Shown: in pieces, positions 19,576 through 28,561 of the stretch
Position numbering within the stretch: position 1 is the first letter of the stretch
Layout: the number at the start of each line of letters is the position of its first letter
Assembly: GCA_947630185.1 (NCBI GenBank)
Contig: CANRGT010000006.1
Coordinates: 30,405 to 94,404, forward strand
Origin: an uncultured Clostridia bacterium
Lineage (GTDB): Bacteria; Bacillota; Clostridia; TANB77; CAG-508
Direction of reading: 5' to 3'
DNA length: 64,000 bases
Made by a program: the position numbers and the translations under genes
The notes under the pieces: model-generated
Told to the model about the DNA's origin: nothing
The model's input: the letters and a program-made list of their open reading frames with translations, nothing else
Database searches by the model: none

Positions 19576-22560
19576 CTACCCAAAAAGCTCCATTATATCT
19601 TCCTTTGATAGTTGATTAATAAAGGTATTCTGAGTAGATAACATATCATCTGCTAGCTTTGCTTTTCTTTGTTGTAATTCATATATTTTTTCTTCTATTG
19701 AATTTTTAGTAATTAATTTATATACTTGGACATTGTGTTTTTGCCCTATTCTATAAGTTCTATCAGTTGCTTGGTTTTCTGCTGATAAATTCCACCATGG
19801 GTCATAGTGTACTACCATGTCTGCACCAGTTAAGTTTAAGCCTGTTCCTCCTGCTTTTAAAGAAATAAGGAATACTTTTATATTTTCATCTTGATTAAAT
19901 CTTTCTACTAGATTTATTCTTTCTGCAACTTTGGTTTGCCCTGTTAGTTTTAAATATTCAATTCCTCTTTTCTTCAATTCTTTTTCTATCATTTCAAACA
20001 TAGAAGTATAGCCTGAAAATAGTAACATTTTGTGTCCACTTGCTACTGCATCTTCTACAACCTCCATGCATTGAATAAGCTTACTGCTTTCACCTTCATA
20101 GTTTTGTAAAAATAGGCTTGGATGGCAACAAATTTGTCTTAGTCTCATTAATAATGCTAATATCTTTATTTGGCTATTTGCAAAGCCATTTTCTTGTATT
20201 TCTTCTGCTACTTCTTTTTTAGCACTAGCTAAATATGATAAATATATTTTTTGTTGTTCTTCTTGCATTTCATTATATAGAACTGTTACTGTTTTGTCTG
20301 GTAACTCTGTTAAAACATCCTTCTTAATTCTTCTTAGTATAAATGGCTCAATCATTTTCTTTAATTGCTCCATTTTTTCTTGATTATTGTCTTTCACTAT
20401 TGGTATTTCATATAATTCTTTAAATTTACGATATTTAAATAAATACCCTGGCATTATATAATCATAAATTGACCATAGCTCAGAAAGTGAATTTTCAATA
20501 GGTGTACCAGTTGATGCAAATCGTGTTTGTGCTACTATTTGCTTTATAGCTTTTGCATTTTGTGTATTATCATTTTTAATATACTGTGCCTCGTCTGCTA
20601 TCATATATTTAAATTCATAATTTTTTTCTGTATATATGTCAATATCTCTTTTTAATGAGTCATAGGAAGTAATTACTAAATTATATTTTTCTATTTTATC
20701 TATTCTTCTTTTTCTTTCTGTTGCACTTCCACTAATAACTTCTACTTTTAAACTTGGTGTAAACTTATTTGCTTCGCCAAGCCAGTTTAAAGTTACTGAG
20801 CTTGGGCATACTACTAAGGATGGCTTTGAGTTTTTACCATTTTCATTTACATATGCTAAAACCACTGCTAACATTTGAAGGGTTTTTCCAAGTCCCATGT
20901 CGTCTGCAAGAACTCCACCAAATTCATACTTATCTAAGGTTCTAAGCCATTGATAACCAATTTTTTGATATGTTCTTAAAGTAGCATTTAAATTTGCTGG
21001 TAATTCTAGGTCCACAGTAGTTTGATTTTCCTTTAATCTGTCCACCATTGTTTGATATGTTTCGTTTGTTTGTATTTCTACATTTTTTAAATTTTTTAGT
21101 ATTTTTTCTAGATAAAGGCTTCTATAACTTGGAAGTGTTATTACACCGTCTTTTATTGTATTGTAATTTATATACATATTAGTTGTAAGTTCTTCTAGGA
21201 ATTGCATTGTCTCATTTTCTTCTAATTTTATATAACTTCCATCTTTTAGCCTGTGAAACTTCTTTTTCAATTCGTATTTTTCTAGCATTTGTGCTAAGTC
21301 AGATAAATCTATTCCTATTTGTGTTAAATCAATTTTTAATAAGTGATTTTCTATTCTTATTCCTATTGATTTTATTTGAAATGAATTTATTTGCTTTTTA
21401 CGAAAGCTATCTGTTGCTAGAACTTCATATTTTTTCATATATTCATCAATTTCTTCTGATAAAAATGAAAAGATATTATCTGAATTTGCAAGCACTAACC
21501 TTGCACTTTTTCTATCTAGCATAAAACCTGTTTCAATAAATCGATTTAATGCTTCATTTTCTCCAATTACATTTCGTGCAATATTAACATTTTGCTCTAA
21601 GAATGGATTTATTTCTTGCTCTCCATAACAAAACTTAACATCTGCTGTGATGTTATTATTTGCATCATAATCTAGATATATTTTAACTCCTAACTTTTTA
21701 GGAATGCACTTTTCCTGAACAGCTTGAGATAAATTTTCTGTAATTATATTATTTTTCATTCTTGGTGCTATCATAGAGAAAAAGCTTGTAAGCTCATTTT
21801 CATCTATAATAATTTCATTGGTATAGTTTTTACGCAACACGTCTAATATTTTTAAAGTATTATTTTCAAAGTCTTTAGTTGCACGATAAATTTCATTTGG
21901 GAATAAAAGATAAATATTCTCTTTTCCTTGTAAAATTTCATAACTAAAAACATCTATATTGCATGTTAATTTAAATCTATTTTCTTCTATTTGTTTTACT
22001 GTAAATGTGATATTAGGCTCATCTGCTGAGAAATAAATTGTTTTTTCTTTTTCGCCTCTTTGAAATAGCACCGTATTATTTTTAAGTGCATCAAAAAAAT
22101 CGTCAAGACCAGTATTTGAAATTAAAATATTGTCTGGTATAAAATTTTTAATATAATAGTTGTATCCATTTGCTACTTCATTATGATATTTCATAATTTC
22201 TGCATATTTTAATAAGAATTTTAATATTGGAAGTGATTCTTCTTCAAAGCTCTCTTCTTGATGAACTAAGTTTAATTTGCTTCCATATTGATAAACTTCT
22301 TTTTTTAACATTCTCTCATAAAATTCTGGTAAGTTTTTAATTTTATAGAATTGAGTATTCCCTATTTTAAATTCTACTTTTAGTGCTTTTGTAAATTCGT
22401 TATAATAAACCTTAGGTATAATCTTTATATTTTTGGCACACGAATCTTTACCTTCTTTTTTAGTTAATTCATCTTGTTCTGTTTGCAAAAAGGTATTTAA
22501 TAATTGCTTATATACTCTATGATTTTCCTTCTCTCGTATTTGTTTTTGATTTTCTAACAT
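19576..22560 (-). CDS. SNF2-family helicase/ATPase
   Basis: GGVLADDMGLGKTLQMLAV, DEAQYIKN, TGTPIENSLSELWSI, LISLKAGGTGLNLTGADMVVHYDPWWN...DRTYRIGQ. Confidence 0.93.
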   Translation of the reverse strand: MLENQKQIREKENHRVYKQLLNTFLQTEQDELTKKEGKDSCAKNIKIIPKVYYNEFTKALKVEFKIGNTQFYKIKNLPEFYERMLKKEVYQYGSKLNLVHQEESFEEESLPILKFLLKYAEIMKYHNEVANGYNYYIKNFIPDNILISNTGLDDFFDALKNNTVLFQRGEKEKTIYFSADEPNITFTVKQIEENRFKLTCNIDVFSYEILQGKENIYLLFPNEIYRATKDFENNTLKILDVLRKNYTNEIIIDENELTSFFSMIAPRMKNNIITENLSQAVQEKCIPKKLGVKIYLDYDANNNITADVKFCYGEQEINPFLEQNVNIARNVIGENEALNRFIETGFMLDRKSARLVLANSDNIFSFLSEEIDEYMKKYEVLATDSFRKKQINSFQIKSIGIRIENHLLKIDLTQIGIDLSDLAQMLEKYELKKKFHRLKDGSYIKLEENETMQFLEELTTNMYINYNTIKDGVITLPSYRSLYLEKILKNLKNVEIQTNETYQTMVDRLKENQTTVDLELPANLNATLRTYQKIGYQWLRTLDKYEFGGVLADDMGLGKTLQMLAVVLAYVNENGKNSKPSLVVCPSSVTLNWLGEANKFTPSLKVEVISGSATERKRRIDKIEKYNLVITSYDSLKRDIDIYTEKNYEFKYMIADEAQYIKNDNTQNAKAIKQIVAQTRFASTGTPIENSLSELWSIYDYIMPGYLFKYRKFKELYEIPIVKDNNQEKMEQLKKMIEPFILRRIKKDVLTELPDKTVTVLYNEMQEEQQKIYLSYLASAKKEVAEEIQENGFANSQIKILALLMRLRQICCHPSLFLQNYEGESSKLIQCMEVVEDAVASGHKMLLFSGYTSMFEMIEKELKKRGIEYLKLTGQTKVAERINLVERFNQDENIKVFLISLKAGGTGLNLTGADMVVHYDPWWNLSAENQATDRTYRIGQKHNVQVYKLITKNSIEEKIYELQQRKAKLADDMLSTQNTFINQLSKEDIMELFG

Positions 22561-22886: not shown

Positions 22887-25800
22887 TTAAATTACAAACT
22901 TCTTAATTAAAACTACTCCACCTGCTAAGATACTAACTACTACTAATATCAAACCTACATATGTTGGAACACTACCTGTTACTACTCCTAGGATTACTGG
23001 TGCATCATCTATATCGTCTTCTCCTGGTTTGTTATTTCCTGGCTCAGAGTCTATATCTGGTGAGTGTGGGTCATTATTGTCTTTGTATATCTCTGCCCAG
23101 TTTACTTTCTCTCCTAAGTTGTTCTTATTGTTTATCCATGTTAGTATAATTTCTACTTGGGCACTCTCCCCTGGTTGTAATAGTGTATCTTTTAATTGGT
23201 CTGTTAATACTTTTCCGTCTTCTTCTCTCCATAATGGATTATCTTTTGGATCAAATCTTAATCCTTCTGGAATGTAGTCTATTAATTCTTTTGCATAGCC
23301 TGCTATTTCTCCTTCGTTTGTTACTTTTATTACGAATTTGAATTTGACTGTTGTTTTATCTATTCTACTTCCTCTTATTTCTACTTTTGCTGGTGGTTCT
23401 GGATTCTCATCTCCTGTATGTCCTGTCTTTGTTACTGTTGTTTTTCCACCATATGTTACTATTGATTCACTTACCCATTTCTTTAAGCTTAAGTCAAAGT
23501 ATTGTACTTTTATTTTTTCTTCATCTATATCATCTTCGTCTGGCTCATCATTGTCTGGTGTAGAATCTACATCTTCTACTGGATCATTGTTTTCGTCTCT
23601 ATCATCTGTTATTTCTGCTATATTAATTATTATTCTGTCTGATGTGTTTGGTTCTGATACTTTAAAAGCTATCTTTACATCTTTGTAGTCTGGCATTGTC
23701 ATTGTTTCTTGGTCAAAGGCTTTTAATAAGTTCGCATTTTCCTCTTTTTCATTTTCTTTTGCTAAATAATCTGTTTCAATGTACTTAGCTTCTTCTACAT
23801 TATCTGTTTCTATGTCTTCTTCAGTATACATTTTCCATCCATACTCTACGTTTGTTTCGTGGTCTGGTAAGAAAGTTAATCCTTCTGGTAAATCATCTTT
23901 TATTTTGCTTGCATAACCTGCCATATTTCCTTCATTAAATATTCTTAATGTATATGTTACTATATTACCATTTGCTACTTGTACAGGATCCTTTGGATGT
24001 TCATATTTGAATTCTGTTTCACTTAATTTTGTAAATACTGGCACTCTGTTTATTATGTCTGTATCATTTACCTTTGTTATGAATTTTCTTAACGCTAAGT
24101 CAAATCTTTGTAATATTAATTTTTCAAAGTCATCATCATCTTGTTGTCCTTCAATATATTTCTTTCCTGCTTCTATTTCTGTATCTTTATAATTTGGTAA
24201 TTCTTCGTCTGTTGGTAAATTATCGTTTTGCACTTTGTCTTCTGGTTTTGAGTTATTATTTGTTAAACTATCCTCGGTTGAATCTCTGTCTACTGTTTCA
24301 GGATTATGTTCTACATCTTCAAATCCAGTAATTTCAGCAATGTTTGTAATCTTTGTGTATATACTAATATCTTCTTTTACTTTACATCTTACTTGTACAT
24401 CAATATAATCTAATTTTTCTCCATCAAATGCTTTTAATAAGACTTTATCTTCTCCTTCTACTCTCTCTGCATACATTGAATCTCTAGTTGCTTCTTTATT
24501 TGTACTTGGTGATGTTATATCTGTTTTTATTGTTCTACCATCATCTGATAAAATCCATCCGTTTTTTACGTTTAATTCATCATTTACTATGAATTCTAGT
24601 TCTTGTGGCAAATGATCTGTTATTTCTGTTACATATCCATCTATTTGGCCTTCATTGTATACTCTAATTGTATATGTTACAATATTTCCATTTGATACAC
24701 CTATAGGCTCTTTTGTATGTTCATATATTGCTGTAGTTTTAACTCCATTTGCTAAATCTGTTACTATTACATTTGGAGTTCTGTCATATTCTTTAACTTT
24801 TTCTCCACTTTGTACACTTGTAATGAATTTTCTTAAAGATAAATCAAAATACTTGCCTATCATTACTAATCTTTCAAAATCATCGTCATCTTGTTGATTT
24901 TCATCTAAGTAATTATCTCTATCTACATTACTTGGAATCGAATCACGATCAACTACTGGTTTCTTATCTTCATCTAAGGTTTCAGTTATTTCTGCTATAT
25001 TTCTTAAAGATTGGTCTTTATCTGTTACTGTTGCTGTAACTTCACATTCTATTTTTAAATCTTTGTATTTGATTTCAGTTCCATCAAATGCTTCTAGTAA
25101 TGTATCTTCTAAATAGTTACTTACAATTGTTTTTCCATCTTTTGATGGATTAGACCACTTATACTCTGTATTTATTGTACTATCTTTTGGATCAATAAAA
25201 GCTAAACCATTTGGTAAATAATCTGTTATTTGTTTTGCATAACCAGATATATTTCCTTCATTATATACTCTAATTGTATAAACTATTTTGTCACCTGTTT
25301 GTACTTTTAGAGGATCTTTTGCATGTACTTTTTCGGCAGTTGTGCCATCATCCCATGTTGCAATTCCACTTGCTAATTTTCCTACTTCTTCTTGTGAAAT
25401 CTTTGGCTCTCTTGCAAATTCATTTTCTCCTTCATTTTTTATATCAACTCCATTTATGCTTGTTATAAATTTTCTTAAAGCTAAGTCAAAGTTTTCCTCT
25501 TTTAAAATTAAATCTTCAAAGTCATCATCATCTTGTTGACTTTTCGTTCCATATGGCCAATCTACATTTCCTGCTTCTGAGTCACGATCTTTTATAGATG
25601 TATTTCCAGATTCATCTTTGTAAATTGTAATTTCTGCTACATTTTTTAGTGATTGTGTTTTAGAAGTTGCAATTACTTCACATTCTATTTTTAAATCTTC
25701 ATAATCTAATGTGTTTCCATCAAAAGCATCTAATTTTTTATTACTTAAATAGTTGGTTACAATTGTTTTTCCATCATTTAATGGATTTGTCCATCCATAA

Positions 25801-27365
25801 GTTGTATTTATTTGACTTTCTGATGTAGGTACAAATTTTAAACCTTCTGGTAAGTAGTCTGTTATTTGTTCAGCATAACCTGCTACATTTCCTTCGTTAT
25901 ATACCCTTATTGTATAAACTACTTTATATCCTTTTCTTACTGTTAAAAGGTCTTTTGTATGTACTTTTTCAGCTGTTGTACCAGCATCCCATTTTGCCGT
26001 TTCTGTTTTTAGATTAGCTATTTCTTCTTCTGATATTTTTGGTGTTCTATCTACAGTTGGTGCTACATCATTAATTTCAGTTATAAATTTTCTTAAAGCT
26101 AAGTCAAATATTTTATCTGGTTCTTTTACAAATTCTTTTTCCACAGCAAAGTTTACTGGTTCTTTTTCTACTATAACAACTGGTTGGTCTGTATTTTTTG
26201 GTTCTTCAACTGACCAATAATTAGCAGTAGTAATAAAAAATGTTCCACTAACTTTAACATTTACAGTTGTAATGTCTTCTGTAGTATTTGGGATAGATAT
26301 ATAAAATACTTTATCATCAGATTCTTTATTTACTAAATCCTTTAAAGCAGTTACTTCTGTTTTAGTTGAATTTAAAATTTTAACATCTGAAATAAGAGCC
26401 TCTTTTCCATCTGTAACTGTTAATCCTAAAGTATAATCTATATTTCTTAACTCTTTCATTTTATATGGACCTATTATATATCTTTCTCCTTTTACTTCAA
26501 GTGTAGGAGTTGTATTTTCTAAGCTTATTGGACTTTCTTTTAAGTTATTAGCATAATTGTATGAAAAATCAGGTTCACTAGGTATTTCTACTAAGTAATT
26601 AAATAATGCTTGACATGCCTCTGCTCTGTCTCTTCCATTTTTGAAAAAATTATCACTGCTACTTAATGATTGATAATTACTGTTTTCATTAGGTACTGCA
26701 TTTAACCAAAATTCAAAAGTATCTTTTACATGATATTCATCTCCACTTGGGTTTGTATAATGCCATATTGCTAATTGTTGAACTGCATCTATATCATCAT
26801 CAGTTAAATACTCAAATTCATAACCAGATATATCAACATCTCCTTCTTTTTTTGCATATTCTTTAGCAGAATTTAATAACATTTGTCTATTTTGTGTTGC
26901 TTGTAATTGACTAGCATCTGAAGAATTTGTTTTGGCTGGTACATATATGTTATCTAAAATCCACATTAATGCCATGTACTCTTTACTATTAACTTCAGGT
27001 AATTTATCTATATATTGTTGTGGTATAGTGCTAGGATTTTTCATATCAAAATATTTAGTATAATGTTGTTCTGTTGGAGTAGCTAAAAAAAGGTTTTCAG
27101 AGCCAAATCCTGGTCCTCCCTTTAAGCAATAAATCGTATCTCCCAAATCTTTTTCTGTATTATATATTTTCCATACATTTTTATTAGAGTTTGCTAATTG
27201 ATATCCATATCCAGATTTTCTTAGCATTTTTATTTTTAAATTCAAATCTCCATCAGCAGCTTTTACAATATTAAATGAGCTATTAAATGTCATAATAGCT
27301 AAGAAAAAAACTGCAATGATTAGCACCAATTTCTTTAATTTCATAATTTTACCAACCTTCTTCAC
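22887..27365 (-). CDS. Surface adhesin: signal peptide, Cys-Gln thioester domain, five DUF11/isopeptide-like repeats, C-terminal TM anchor
   Basis: IYCLKGG and VQQLAIWHYTN thioester motifs; repeated FDL(A/S)L(R/K)K(F/W) and NEGxxxGYxxxIxDxLPxGLxF; C-terminal TM without obvious LPXTG. Confidence 0.8.
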   Translation of the reverse strand: MKKVGKIMKLKKLVLIIAVFFLAIMTFNSSFNIVKAADGDLNLKIKMLRKSGYGYQLANSNKNVWKIYNTEKDLGDTIYCLKGGPGFGSENLFLATPTEQHYTKYFDMKNPSTIPQQYIDKLPEVNSKEYMALMWILDNIYVPAKTNSSDASQLQATQNRQMLLNSAKEYAKKEGDVDISGYEFEYLTDDDIDAVQQLAIWHYTNPSGDEYHVKDTFEFWLNAVPNENSNYQSLSSSDNFFKNGRDRAEACQALFNYLVEIPSEPDFSYNYANNLKESPISLENTTPTLEVKGERYIIGPYKMKELRNIDYTLGLTVTDGKEALISDVKILNSTKTEVTALKDLVNKESDDKVFYISIPNTTEDITTVNVKVSGTFFITTANYWSVEEPKNTDQPVVIVEKEPVNFAVEKEFVKEPDKIFDLALRKFITEINDVAPTVDRTPKISEEEIANLKTETAKWDAGTTAEKVHTKDLLTVRKGYKVVYTIRVYNEGNVAGYAEQITDYLPEGLKFVPTSESQINTTYGWTNPLNDGKTIVTNYLSNKKLDAFDGNTLDYEDLKIECEVIATSKTQSLKNVAEITIYKDESGNTSIKDRDSEAGNVDWPYGTKSQQDDDDFEDLILKEENFDLALRKFITSINGVDIKNEGENEFAREPKISQEEVGKLASGIATWDDGTTAEKVHAKDPLKVQTGDKIVYTIRVYNEGNISGYAKQITDYLPNGLAFIDPKDSTINTEYKWSNPSKDGKTIVSNYLEDTLLEAFDGTEIKYKDLKIECEVTATVTDKDQSLRNIAEITETLDEDKKPVVDRDSIPSNVDRDNYLDENQQDDDDFERLVMIGKYFDLSLRKFITSVQSGEKVKEYDRTPNVIVTDLANGVKTTAIYEHTKEPIGVSNGNIVTYTIRVYNEGQIDGYVTEITDHLPQELEFIVNDELNVKNGWILSDDGRTIKTDITSPSTNKEATRDSMYAERVEGEDKVLLKAFDGEKLDYIDVQVRCKVKEDISIYTKITNIAEITGFEDVEHNPETVDRDSTEDSLTNNNSKPEDKVQNDNLPTDEELPNYKDTEIEAGKKYIEGQQDDDDFEKLILQRFDLALRKFITKVNDTDIINRVPVFTKLSETEFKYEHPKDPVQVANGNIVTYTLRIFNEGNMAGYASKIKDDLPEGLTFLPDHETNVEYGWKMYTEEDIETDNVEEAKYIETDYLAKENEKEENANLLKAFDQETMTMPDYKDVKIAFKVSEPNTSDRIIINIAEITDDRDENNDPVEDVDSTPDNDEPDEDDIDEEKIKVQYFDLSLKKWVSESIVTYGGKTTVTKTGHTGDENPEPPAKVEIRGSRIDKTTVKFKFVIKVTNEGEIAGYAKELIDYIPEGLRFDPKDNPLWREEDGKVLTDQLKDTLLQPGESAQVEIILTWINNKNNLGEKVNWAEIYKDNNDPHSPDIDSEPGNNKPGEDDIDDAPVILGVVTGSVPTYVGLILVVVSILAGGVVLIKKFVI

Positions 27366-27620
27366 ATACTAGTATTAATTTAATTTTACTTTCATTTCTT
27401 TAGTATGTCAATAACAGTATTTTACTGGTTTTCCATTATATTTCAATATCCATTTTTTTAGGCTTACGGATTTAATTTATTCAAAAAAATCAGTCATATA
27501 TTACAATTATATTACATTTTCGTCATATTTTCAAGTATTTTAGTGTTTTTAATTTCTCTTTTTCTTATTTCCGTAGGATTTTGTCGATTGTTTTACATAA
27601 TTTAGTGATTTCAATATATA

Positions 27621-27682: not shown

Positions 27683-28561
27683 CTATAAAATTTTTTCTTT
27701 TTCTCTTTCTCTTAAAATAAGCCCTAATTTAATACCAGCTTCTATTTCACTTAGTTCTAGTGGTTTTCTTAACATTTTACCTATAACCTTCATTTCTTGC
27801 TTTTCTGATACTTTCCCTGATAATTCATCCCTAATTCTACTAATATATTCGTCAAACTTCATTGTTTCTAATTTTCTAGCTGCTATCAATTTTATTCTTT
27901 TTAAAATGTTTTCAAAATTTATATCATAATTTTCAAAACCTTTTTCAAGCATAAAGTCACCACCGTCTAATCTAACCTCTGATAATCCCATTTTTCTTTT
28001 ACTATCATATAATTTTACAAGTAATGCTACCATACTAGAATTTATAACTTTTCTATTTTCAGGTTTGAAATCATGAAATAAGTATTCTGGCTCTGGTACC
28101 CAAATTCCCCATTCTTTATCTTCTACACCAATACATCTAGCTTGGTAATAATATGGTGTAACATATAGCTCCCTCTTTTCACCATTTTTGTCTGCAAAAT
28201 AATAAAGTGGGCTAATAACATTACTTTTATTATCTTTACTTAAGCTTTGCAAGTTTTCAAATTCTCTTTTTCCAGTTCCAAATGGTGTTGCCGGTTGATT
28301 TACTACAAGAGTATATTGTCTGCTTTCATCAATAGTTAAAACATAAACTAGCTGTGTACTTCCATAATTTATAAATTCTATTCTTCTTTGGTTATATTGA
28401 AATTCTGGAACTGCATCACTTGCAAGTACTTGTTTAATAAAATTTTGTATACCAAAAAATTCATTTAAAGTGTTTTCTTCACTATTTTTTCCAGGTGGCA
28501 TTTTTAAATAATTTATTCCGCCATAATCAGGTATGCCTAAAGGGTCTTCTTTTCTTATCAT
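27683..28561 (-). CDS. Unknown protein, possibly a degenerate kinase-like fold
   Basis: INYGSTQLVYVLT...YTLVVNQPA...REFENLQSLS...VISPLYYF...LYVTPYYYQ suggests an N-lobe/hinge arrangement; weak. Confidence 0.45.
   Translation of the reverse strand: MIRKEDPLGIPDYGGINYLKMPPGKNSEENTLNEFFGIQNFIKQVLASDAVPEFQYNQRRIEFINYGSTQLVYVLTIDESRQYTLVVNQPATPFGTGKREFENLQSLSKDNKSNVISPLYYFADKNGEKRELYVTPYYYQARCIGVEDKEWGIWVPEPEYLFHDFKPENRKVINSSMVALLVKLYDSKRKMGLSEVRLDGGDFMLEKGFENYDINFENILKRIKLIAARKLETMKFDEYISRIRDELSGKVSEKQEMKVIGKMLRKPLELSEIEAGIKLGLILREREKEKIL

What the first reader, a model, noticed from the sequence alone, without database searches (positions are those of the whole stretch)
22887..27365. Thioester-domain adhesin with five repeat domains, each bounded by acidic motifs
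The N-terminal region has IYCLKGG and VQQLAIWHYTN, fitting the Cys and Gln of internal thioester domains that covalently bind host surfaces. It is followed by five FDL(A/S)L-type repeats (starting near 26115, 25490, 24850, 24105 and 23495). Most repeats end in QQDDDDFE. The C-terminal TM lacks a clear LPXTG, so anchoring may be sortase-independent.
Basis: partly seen in the sequence, partly recalled or inferred. Interest (0 to 1): 0.65.

Follow-up and report, generated by a model that had tools for sequence, protein, structure and literature searches.

The report
Covalent-grip surface adhesin of gut Clostridia
This gene encodes a long surface protein of an uncultured Clostridia bacterium that probably bonds chemically to its target through a reactive tip held on five self-stapled stalk domains; the kind is known, but the stalk type, the enlarged tip and the conserved tail without a cell-wall sorting motif make it a new variant.

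Summary
The ORF, the five repeats and the acidic motifs are real and far beyond chance. The N-terminus is a thioester domain (Pfam TED; 35/35 homologues match; AlphaFold pLDDT 91; the only strong PDB fold hits are class II TEDs). VQQLAIW is the helical "T motif" (TQxxΦW), published as not forming the bond. The likely bond is Cys80-Gln394 (DQPVVIV, window 26184-26186): the only Cys, and the only Gln outside the T motif, invariant in 35/35. The repeats are DUF11/"CLIPPER" domains; all five carry the Lys/Asp/Asn isopeptide triad, conserved in 98-100% of 162 related repeats. The acidic motif (DxDS...DDxD, 97-98%) belongs to each domain; calcium binding is untested. The tail lacks LPXTG but is very conserved (L-S/G-V/I-x-T-G, TM, IKKFV-I/L at the C-terminus) and recurs in 57/59 genomes of the family, also on other giant surface proteins. 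It has no sortase-motif proline, so membrane anchoring is likelier, though unproven. Best reading: a TIE-type covalent adhesin; this TED subtype was found only in one Clostridia family in a 196-genome class sample. New variant of a known kind.

The parts
22887..27365 (-). Whole ORF, TED-DUF11 surface protein, 1492 aa; probable true start ATG at 27344 (1485 aa)
27258..27344 (-). Signal peptide, residues 8-36 (MKLKKLVLIIAVFFLAIMTFNSSFNIVKA); likely cut after VKA
   Evidence: sequence; paralogues have similar N-termini; no signal-peptide predictor was run
26109..27260 (-). Thioester domain, residues 36-419, class II-like with beta-sandwich insert and long C-terminal hairpin
27126..27128 (-). Cys80, C motif IYCLKGG, predicted thioester Cys
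   Evidence: 35/35 conserved
26763..26783 (-). T motif VQQLAIW (residues 195-201), on a helix; not the bond-forming Gln
   Evidence: PMC6194298
26184..26186 (-). Gln394 in DQPVVIV, predicted thioester Gln in the turn of the long beta-hairpin
   Evidence: 35/35 conserved, also in divergent members, position in model
25515..26108 (-). Repeat 1, DUF11/CLIPPER; triad K426-D503-N575; ends QQDDDDFE
24873..25490 (-). Repeat 2; triad K632-D715-N789; ends QQDDDDFE
24123..24848 (-). Repeat 3; triad K846-D917-N1008; ends QQDDDDFE
23523..24104 (-). Repeat 4; triad K1094-D1157-N1248; ends EDDID
23001..23498 (-). Repeat 5; triad K1296-D1363-N1422; ends EDDIDDA
22890..23021 (-). Conserved tail EDDIDDAPVILGVVTG-SVPTY-TM-KKFVI; no LPXTG
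   Evidence: 32 complete homologues; 57/59 genomes of the family
22905..22958 (-). Hydrophobic stretch VGLILVVVSILAGGVVLI, predicted TM
   Evidence: sequence; no TM predictor was run
27383..27411 (-). Promoter-like TTGACA-17-TAAAAT upstream of the start (weak: 35 sites found, 29 expected in the region)

Best explanation
A secreted, C-terminally anchored fibrillar adhesin of the TIE type. A class II-like thioester domain sits at the tip and would form an internal Cys80-Gln394 thioester. It would react with a nucleophile (by analogy a lysine amine) on a host, mucus or bacterial target and make a permanent amide link through Gln394. Five DUF11/CLIPPER domains form the stalk, each probably stapled by a Lys-Asn isopeptide bond helped by an Asp, which would resist force and proteases. 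The acidic DxDS...DDxD element closing each domain is an integral segment, confidently modelled in repeat 1, that may bind a metal. The tail is most simply a single membrane-spanning anchor with a short KKFVI cytoplasmic end. Shown here: sequence, conservation, predicted fold, homology. Inferred: the covalent bonds, the target, the anchoring route and the metal.
For: TED above Pfam cut-off; 35/35 homologues match TED; AlphaFold pLDDT 91.0, pTM 0.86 with helical part, beta-sandwich insert and long terminal hairpin; top four PDB fold hits all class II TEDs, E 5e-10 to 8e-7. Cys80 and Gln394 invariant 35/35; a QPVVIV-like Q motif is kept in divergent members, including one with no room for the insert. 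Hairpin strands 332-350 and 361-378 of the model flank construct residue Q359 (=Gln394). DUF11 in 61/61 tandem-repeat rows; K and D invariant and N 98% in 162 repeats; all five window triads present; the only PDB sequence hit of the repeat profile is 9IFR, the isopeptide DUF11 structure (weak, E 0.21). PMC4450167: TEDs of this kind react with a fibrinogen lysine. Four copies of the subtype in this genome.
Against: No experiment. Fold TM-scores to class II TEDs are low (0.25-0.36, rmsd 10-14.5 A), so the lobes are arranged differently or enlarged. Sequence profile search of the PDB finds no TED. Profile alignment to the LPXTG-type TEDs is weak and puts the two Gln two residues apart. Cys-Gln and Lys-Asn distances could not be measured. 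No ligand is known. The sequences come almost entirely from MAGs.
Confidence: 0.8

Rival explanations
1. Thioester forms between Cys80 and Gln196/Gln197 of VQQLAIW.
For: Both Gln are invariant in 35/35 close homologues.
Against: In solved TEDs this helix Gln hydrogen-bonds the Cys backbone and is not needed for the bond (PMC6194298). The bond-forming Gln is on the C-terminal strand Q, after the T motif, matching Gln394. The residue at Gln196 is Glu in a divergent member (L130).
Confidence: 0.05
2. Same adhesin, but covalently anchored to the wall by a non-canonical sortase that reads L(S/G)(V/I)xTG before the TM.
For: T/S-G sits at a near-fixed place before the TM and KK in 32/32 complete homologues. 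The genome has about ten sortase genes (11 Pfam matches, two of them on one stretch), some without an obvious neighbouring substrate. The signal recurs on other giant proteins.
Against: The sortase-adjacent substrates found in this genome keep a Pro (LPKTG, LPSTG, LPQTG, APQTG, SPKTG), absent at this place here in 32/32. The Pro-less NVQTG motif of C. difficile is not cleaved by its sortase (PMC5569036). Pfam Gram_pos_anchor does not report this tail.
Confidence: 0.25
3. A degenerate TED that only folds, acting as a non-covalent adhesin or structural surface protein.
For: No reactivity data; Pfam score only just above cut-off on the full protein.
Against: Cys and Gln are invariant across 35 sequences that go down to 31% identity with the window domain.
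Confidence: 0.12

Closest known systems
Class II TED proteins BaTIE (6FWV) and EfmTIE86 (6FWY), and the conjugation adhesin TIEpLS20
   Same: N-terminal TED with Cys motif, T motif, beta-sandwich insert, hairpin carrying the Gln, isopeptide stalk
   Different: Cys-Gln spacing 314 against about 170-205; DUF11 (CnaA-like) rather than CnaB stalk; no LPXTG
DUF11/CLIPPER domains (PF01345, structure 9IFR, PMC12617251)
   Same: Pfam match, Lys/Asp/Asn triad, tandem stalk in a fibrillar adhesin
   Different: Longer domains (about 200 aa, with an extra segment between the Lys and the DUF11 core) and a near-invariant acidic DxDS...DDxD closing element (not compared here with DUF11 domains of other phyla)
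SfbI and other class I TEDs (PMC4450167)
   Same: Predicted thioester chemistry
   Different: Class I lacks the insert; fold hit only E 0.037
LPXTG-type TED proteins of the same genomes (L018, L019-L048)
   Same: TED with invariant Cys and Gln, followed by CnaB-like domains
   Different: Mostly small, next to a sortase, many ending in LPxTG plus one residue; no DUF11 stalk, no TM tail

Membership tests
Thioester domain (TED, PF08341) | Pfam profile above curated cut-off | tested here: met
   22.7 bits whole protein, 28.5 on the domain, cut-off 22
Thioester domain (TED, PF08341) | Invariant Cys in [YFL]C-hydrophobic-hydrophilic motif | tested here: met
   YCLK, 35/35
Thioester domain (TED, PF08341) | TQxxΦW motif | tested here: met
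   QQLAIW with Gln in place of Thr
Thioester domain (TED, PF08341) | Bond-forming Gln after the T motif on the last hairpin | tested here: met
   Gln394 invariant, in the hairpin turn of the model; ΦQζΦΦ fits only weakly (D before Q)
Thioester domain (TED, PF08341) | Actual Cys-Gln thioester (17 Da loss) | not testable with these tools
   needs mass spectrometry; Cys-Gln distance not readable from the model output
Class II TED | Beta-sandwich inserted before the Gln hairpin | tested here: met
   model strands 245-324 between the last helix and the hairpin; fold hits are class II
Class II TED | Close global superposition with class II structures | tested here: inconclusive
   prob 1.00 but TM 0.25-0.36
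DUF11/CLIPPER isopeptide domain | Pfam DUF11 match | tested here: met
   85.9 bits, 5 stretches; 61/61
DUF11/CLIPPER isopeptide domain | Lys, Asp, Asn triad | tested here: met
   five of five repeats; 98-100% in 162 repeats
DUF11/CLIPPER isopeptide domain | Covalent Lys-Asn bond | not testable with these tools
   needs mass or structure
LPXTG sortase substrate | LPXTG or accepted variant before TM and charged tail | tested here: not met
   0 of 32 tails
TIE protein | TED at N-terminus plus isopeptide/ester stalk plus surface anchor | tested here: met
   architecture, with a TM tail rather than LPXTG
Calcium-binding linker | Metal site formed by the acidic motif | not testable with these tools
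   motif 97-98% conserved, segment pLDDT about 90 in repeat 1; no metal modelling

The most novel reading that the evidence does not exclude
The proline-less tail (acidic-A-x-V-x-L-S/G-V/I-x-T-G, TM, IKKFV-I/L) is an undescribed C-terminal sorting signal, shared by giant surface proteins across this Clostridia family and handled by a dedicated sortase or other transpeptidase.
Probability: 0.2. Interest if true: 0.6.

Novelty: new variant of a known kind. Interest (0 to 1): 0.42.

Why it matters
Covalent thioester adhesins were defined mainly in pathogens and in a conjugation system. Here a family of small-genome, uncultured Clostridia, with relatives recovered in animal-associated MAGs, carries giant versions, four of this subtype in one genome. 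They use a different stapled stalk and a different tail. If the chemistry holds, these bacteria could hold permanently to mucus, host cells or other microbes, and the tail poses a testable anchoring question.

Tried and rejected
phmmer of the whole protein against the PDB: no hits; TED profile: none. Global hhalign of the large against the small TEDs failed; local alignment was weak but collinear, with the Cys aligned and the Gln two residues apart. pLS20 was fetched as a class II yardstick, but no intact gene 34 was found in the stretch taken. tblastn of the repeats against plasmids: none. NVQTG as precedent for a Pro-less sortase motif: reported not cleaved. Promoter scan near chance, no terminator found. 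Fold search of the two-repeat model does not discriminate. Model coordinates are not exposed, so distances were not measured. An early scan of loci L019-L048 read only one strand and was redone on both.

Full report
Observation. The window holds one open frame of 1492 codons on the minus strand, 22887-27365. The GTG start is probably not the real one: an in-frame ATG at 27344 begins a typical signal peptide, has AAGAAGG 11 nt upstream, and agrees with the starts of paralogues. The five repeats are 32-60% identical, with alignment z-scores of 7 to 42 against shuffled copies, so they are not chance. Residue numbers below count from the GTG.

Relatives. The genome (1.64 Mb, 60 contigs, 5.4% estimated contamination) has four genes of this kind: the window gene, two in tandem on contig 2 and one on contig 41. 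Those on contigs 2 and 41 interleave the same repeats with a second, CnaB-like domain (inspection). A search of named genome contigs gave 35 loci, all labelled Clostridia or Clostridium, nearly all MAGs. A profile of this TED subtype was found in 4 of 196 genomes sampled across the class, all in the same family. Pfam TED in any form occurs in 57 of 59 genomes of that family.

Tip. Pfam TED matches the window domain (22.7 bits whole protein, 28.5 for the domain, cut-off 22) and all 35 homologues. AlphaFold with 35 sequences gave mean pLDDT 91.0 and pTM 0.86. The model has an N-terminal beta part ending at the Cys, a helical part, a beta-sandwich between the last helix and the end, and a long hairpin (strands 332-350 and 361-378 of the construct). 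The four PDB matches with E below 0.001 are all class II TEDs (6FWY, 6FWV); the class I SfbI domain follows at 0.037. TM-scores are low, so I claim fold membership, not close superposition.

Which glutamine. The TED literature (PMC4450167, PMC6194298) separates three motifs: C ([YFL]C..), T (TQxxΦW) and Q (ΦQζΦΦ). The Gln and Trp of the T motif are not needed for the bond; the bond-forming Gln follows on the last strand. VQQLAIW is the T motif and lies on a helix in the model. Among all Cys and Gln of the domain only Cys80, Gln196, Gln197 and Gln394 are invariant in 35/35. Gln394, in DQPVVIV, sits in the turn of the long hairpin. Divergent members keep it as TQPVVLV, EQPLVEI, VQPIVII and QQPVIEI; the last belongs to a protein (L129) with too little sequence for the beta-sandwich, resembling class I. 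Cys80-Gln394 is therefore the likely thioester. This is inference from homology: the atom distance was not available.

Stalk. The repeats match DUF11 (85.9 bits; 61/61). DUF11 was recently shown to hold a Lys-Asn isopeptide with an Asp and was renamed CLIPPER (PMC12617251). In 162 repeats from the window and its relatives Lys7 and Asp90 of the repeat (repeat 2 numbering) are invariant and Asn164 is 98% conserved. All five window repeats have the triad: 426/503/575, 632/715/789, 846/917/1008, 1094/1157/1248 and 1296/1363/1422. In the two-repeat model (pLDDT 90.9) the Lys lies on the first strand and the Asn on the last long strand of each domain. The repeat profile's only PDB sequence hit is 9IFR itself, weakly (E 0.21). 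The fold search of the two-repeat model returned integrin legs and antigen I/II C-terminal domains, so it does not discriminate. Assigning the catalytic Asp to the DxLP aspartate is my reading of the alignment to 9IFR; the published residue numbers fit it to within one residue.

Acidic motif. QQDDDDFE is the second half of an element DxDSxPxN...DDxD that closes every domain: DxDS 98% and DDxD 97% over 162 repeats. It occurs also at the end of the fifth repeat (EDDIDDAPVIL), where the chain runs into the tail. It is part of the domain rather than a separate linker, and in the repeat 1 model it is ordered (block pLDDT about 90). Metal binding is plausible and untested.

Tail. None of 32 complete homologues has LPXTG or an accepted variant. 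All have an acidic stretch, A-x-V-x-L (or a close variant), S/G/A/T-(V/I/T)-x-(T/S)-G, about five residues, a TM and (I/L)(K/R)(K/R)(F/Y)V(I/L) at or within one residue of the end. Tails of this type are found in 57 of 59 genomes of the family, including on proteins of about 1700 residues without a TED match; two neighbouring giant proteins have LPPFG at the same place. The genome has about ten sortase genes, and the neighbouring substrates found keep a proline (LPKTG, LPSTG, LPQTG, APQTG, SPKTG). A Pro-less motif of C. difficile, NVQTG, is not cleaved by its sortase (PMC5569036). I favour plain membrane anchoring, with a non-canonical sorting signal as a real alternative.

Setting. The gene stands between a SNF2-type helicase downstream on the same strand (closest curated model a pilus-regulating Snf2 helicase, but far below its cut-off) and an unassigned 292-aa protein upstream. 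No sortase is adjacent.

Verdict. A TIE-type covalent adhesin, new variant: enlarged class II-like TED, DUF11 stalk, Pro-less conserved tail, the TED subtype found only in one Clostridia family in the sample examined. The covalent chemistry, the target and the anchoring route remain to be shown.

Noticed in passing
L018:3872-6466 (own genome, contig 8) and loci L019-L025, L030, L033-L035, L038, L040-L042, L048: Seventeen TED-locus proteins in as many genomes (412-865 aa) end exactly at LPxTG plus one residue (M, Y, F, W or K) and a stop, with no TM or charged tail in frame; all seventeen have a sortase-like TLxTC frame within the fetched stretch. They look like sortase substrates without a membrane-retention segment.
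   Followed up: partly
L095:4778-15828 and L096:1112-11884 (contig 2): Four adjacent giant surface proteins (1708-1947 aa): two carry the LSVVTG tail and a terminal FDLRLDKY repeat, two carry an ILPPFG-(E/T)HY-TM-IKK tail and YCIDPG/YCIEPK Cys motifs that Pfam TED did not report.
   Followed up: partly
window 19576-22560 (-): SNF2 helicase directly downstream; best curated model is a pilus expression-regulating Snf2 helicase (511 bits against a cut-off of 1100), so a link to surface-protein regulation is only a lead.
   Followed up: no
L129 (genome G008): A TED-DUF11 relative whose TED has too little sequence between the last helix and the Q motif to hold the beta-sandwich, suggesting class I-like and class II-like forms within one adhesin family.
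   Followed up: no
window 27683-28561 (-): 292-aa protein upstream with no NCBIfam match.
   Followed up: no
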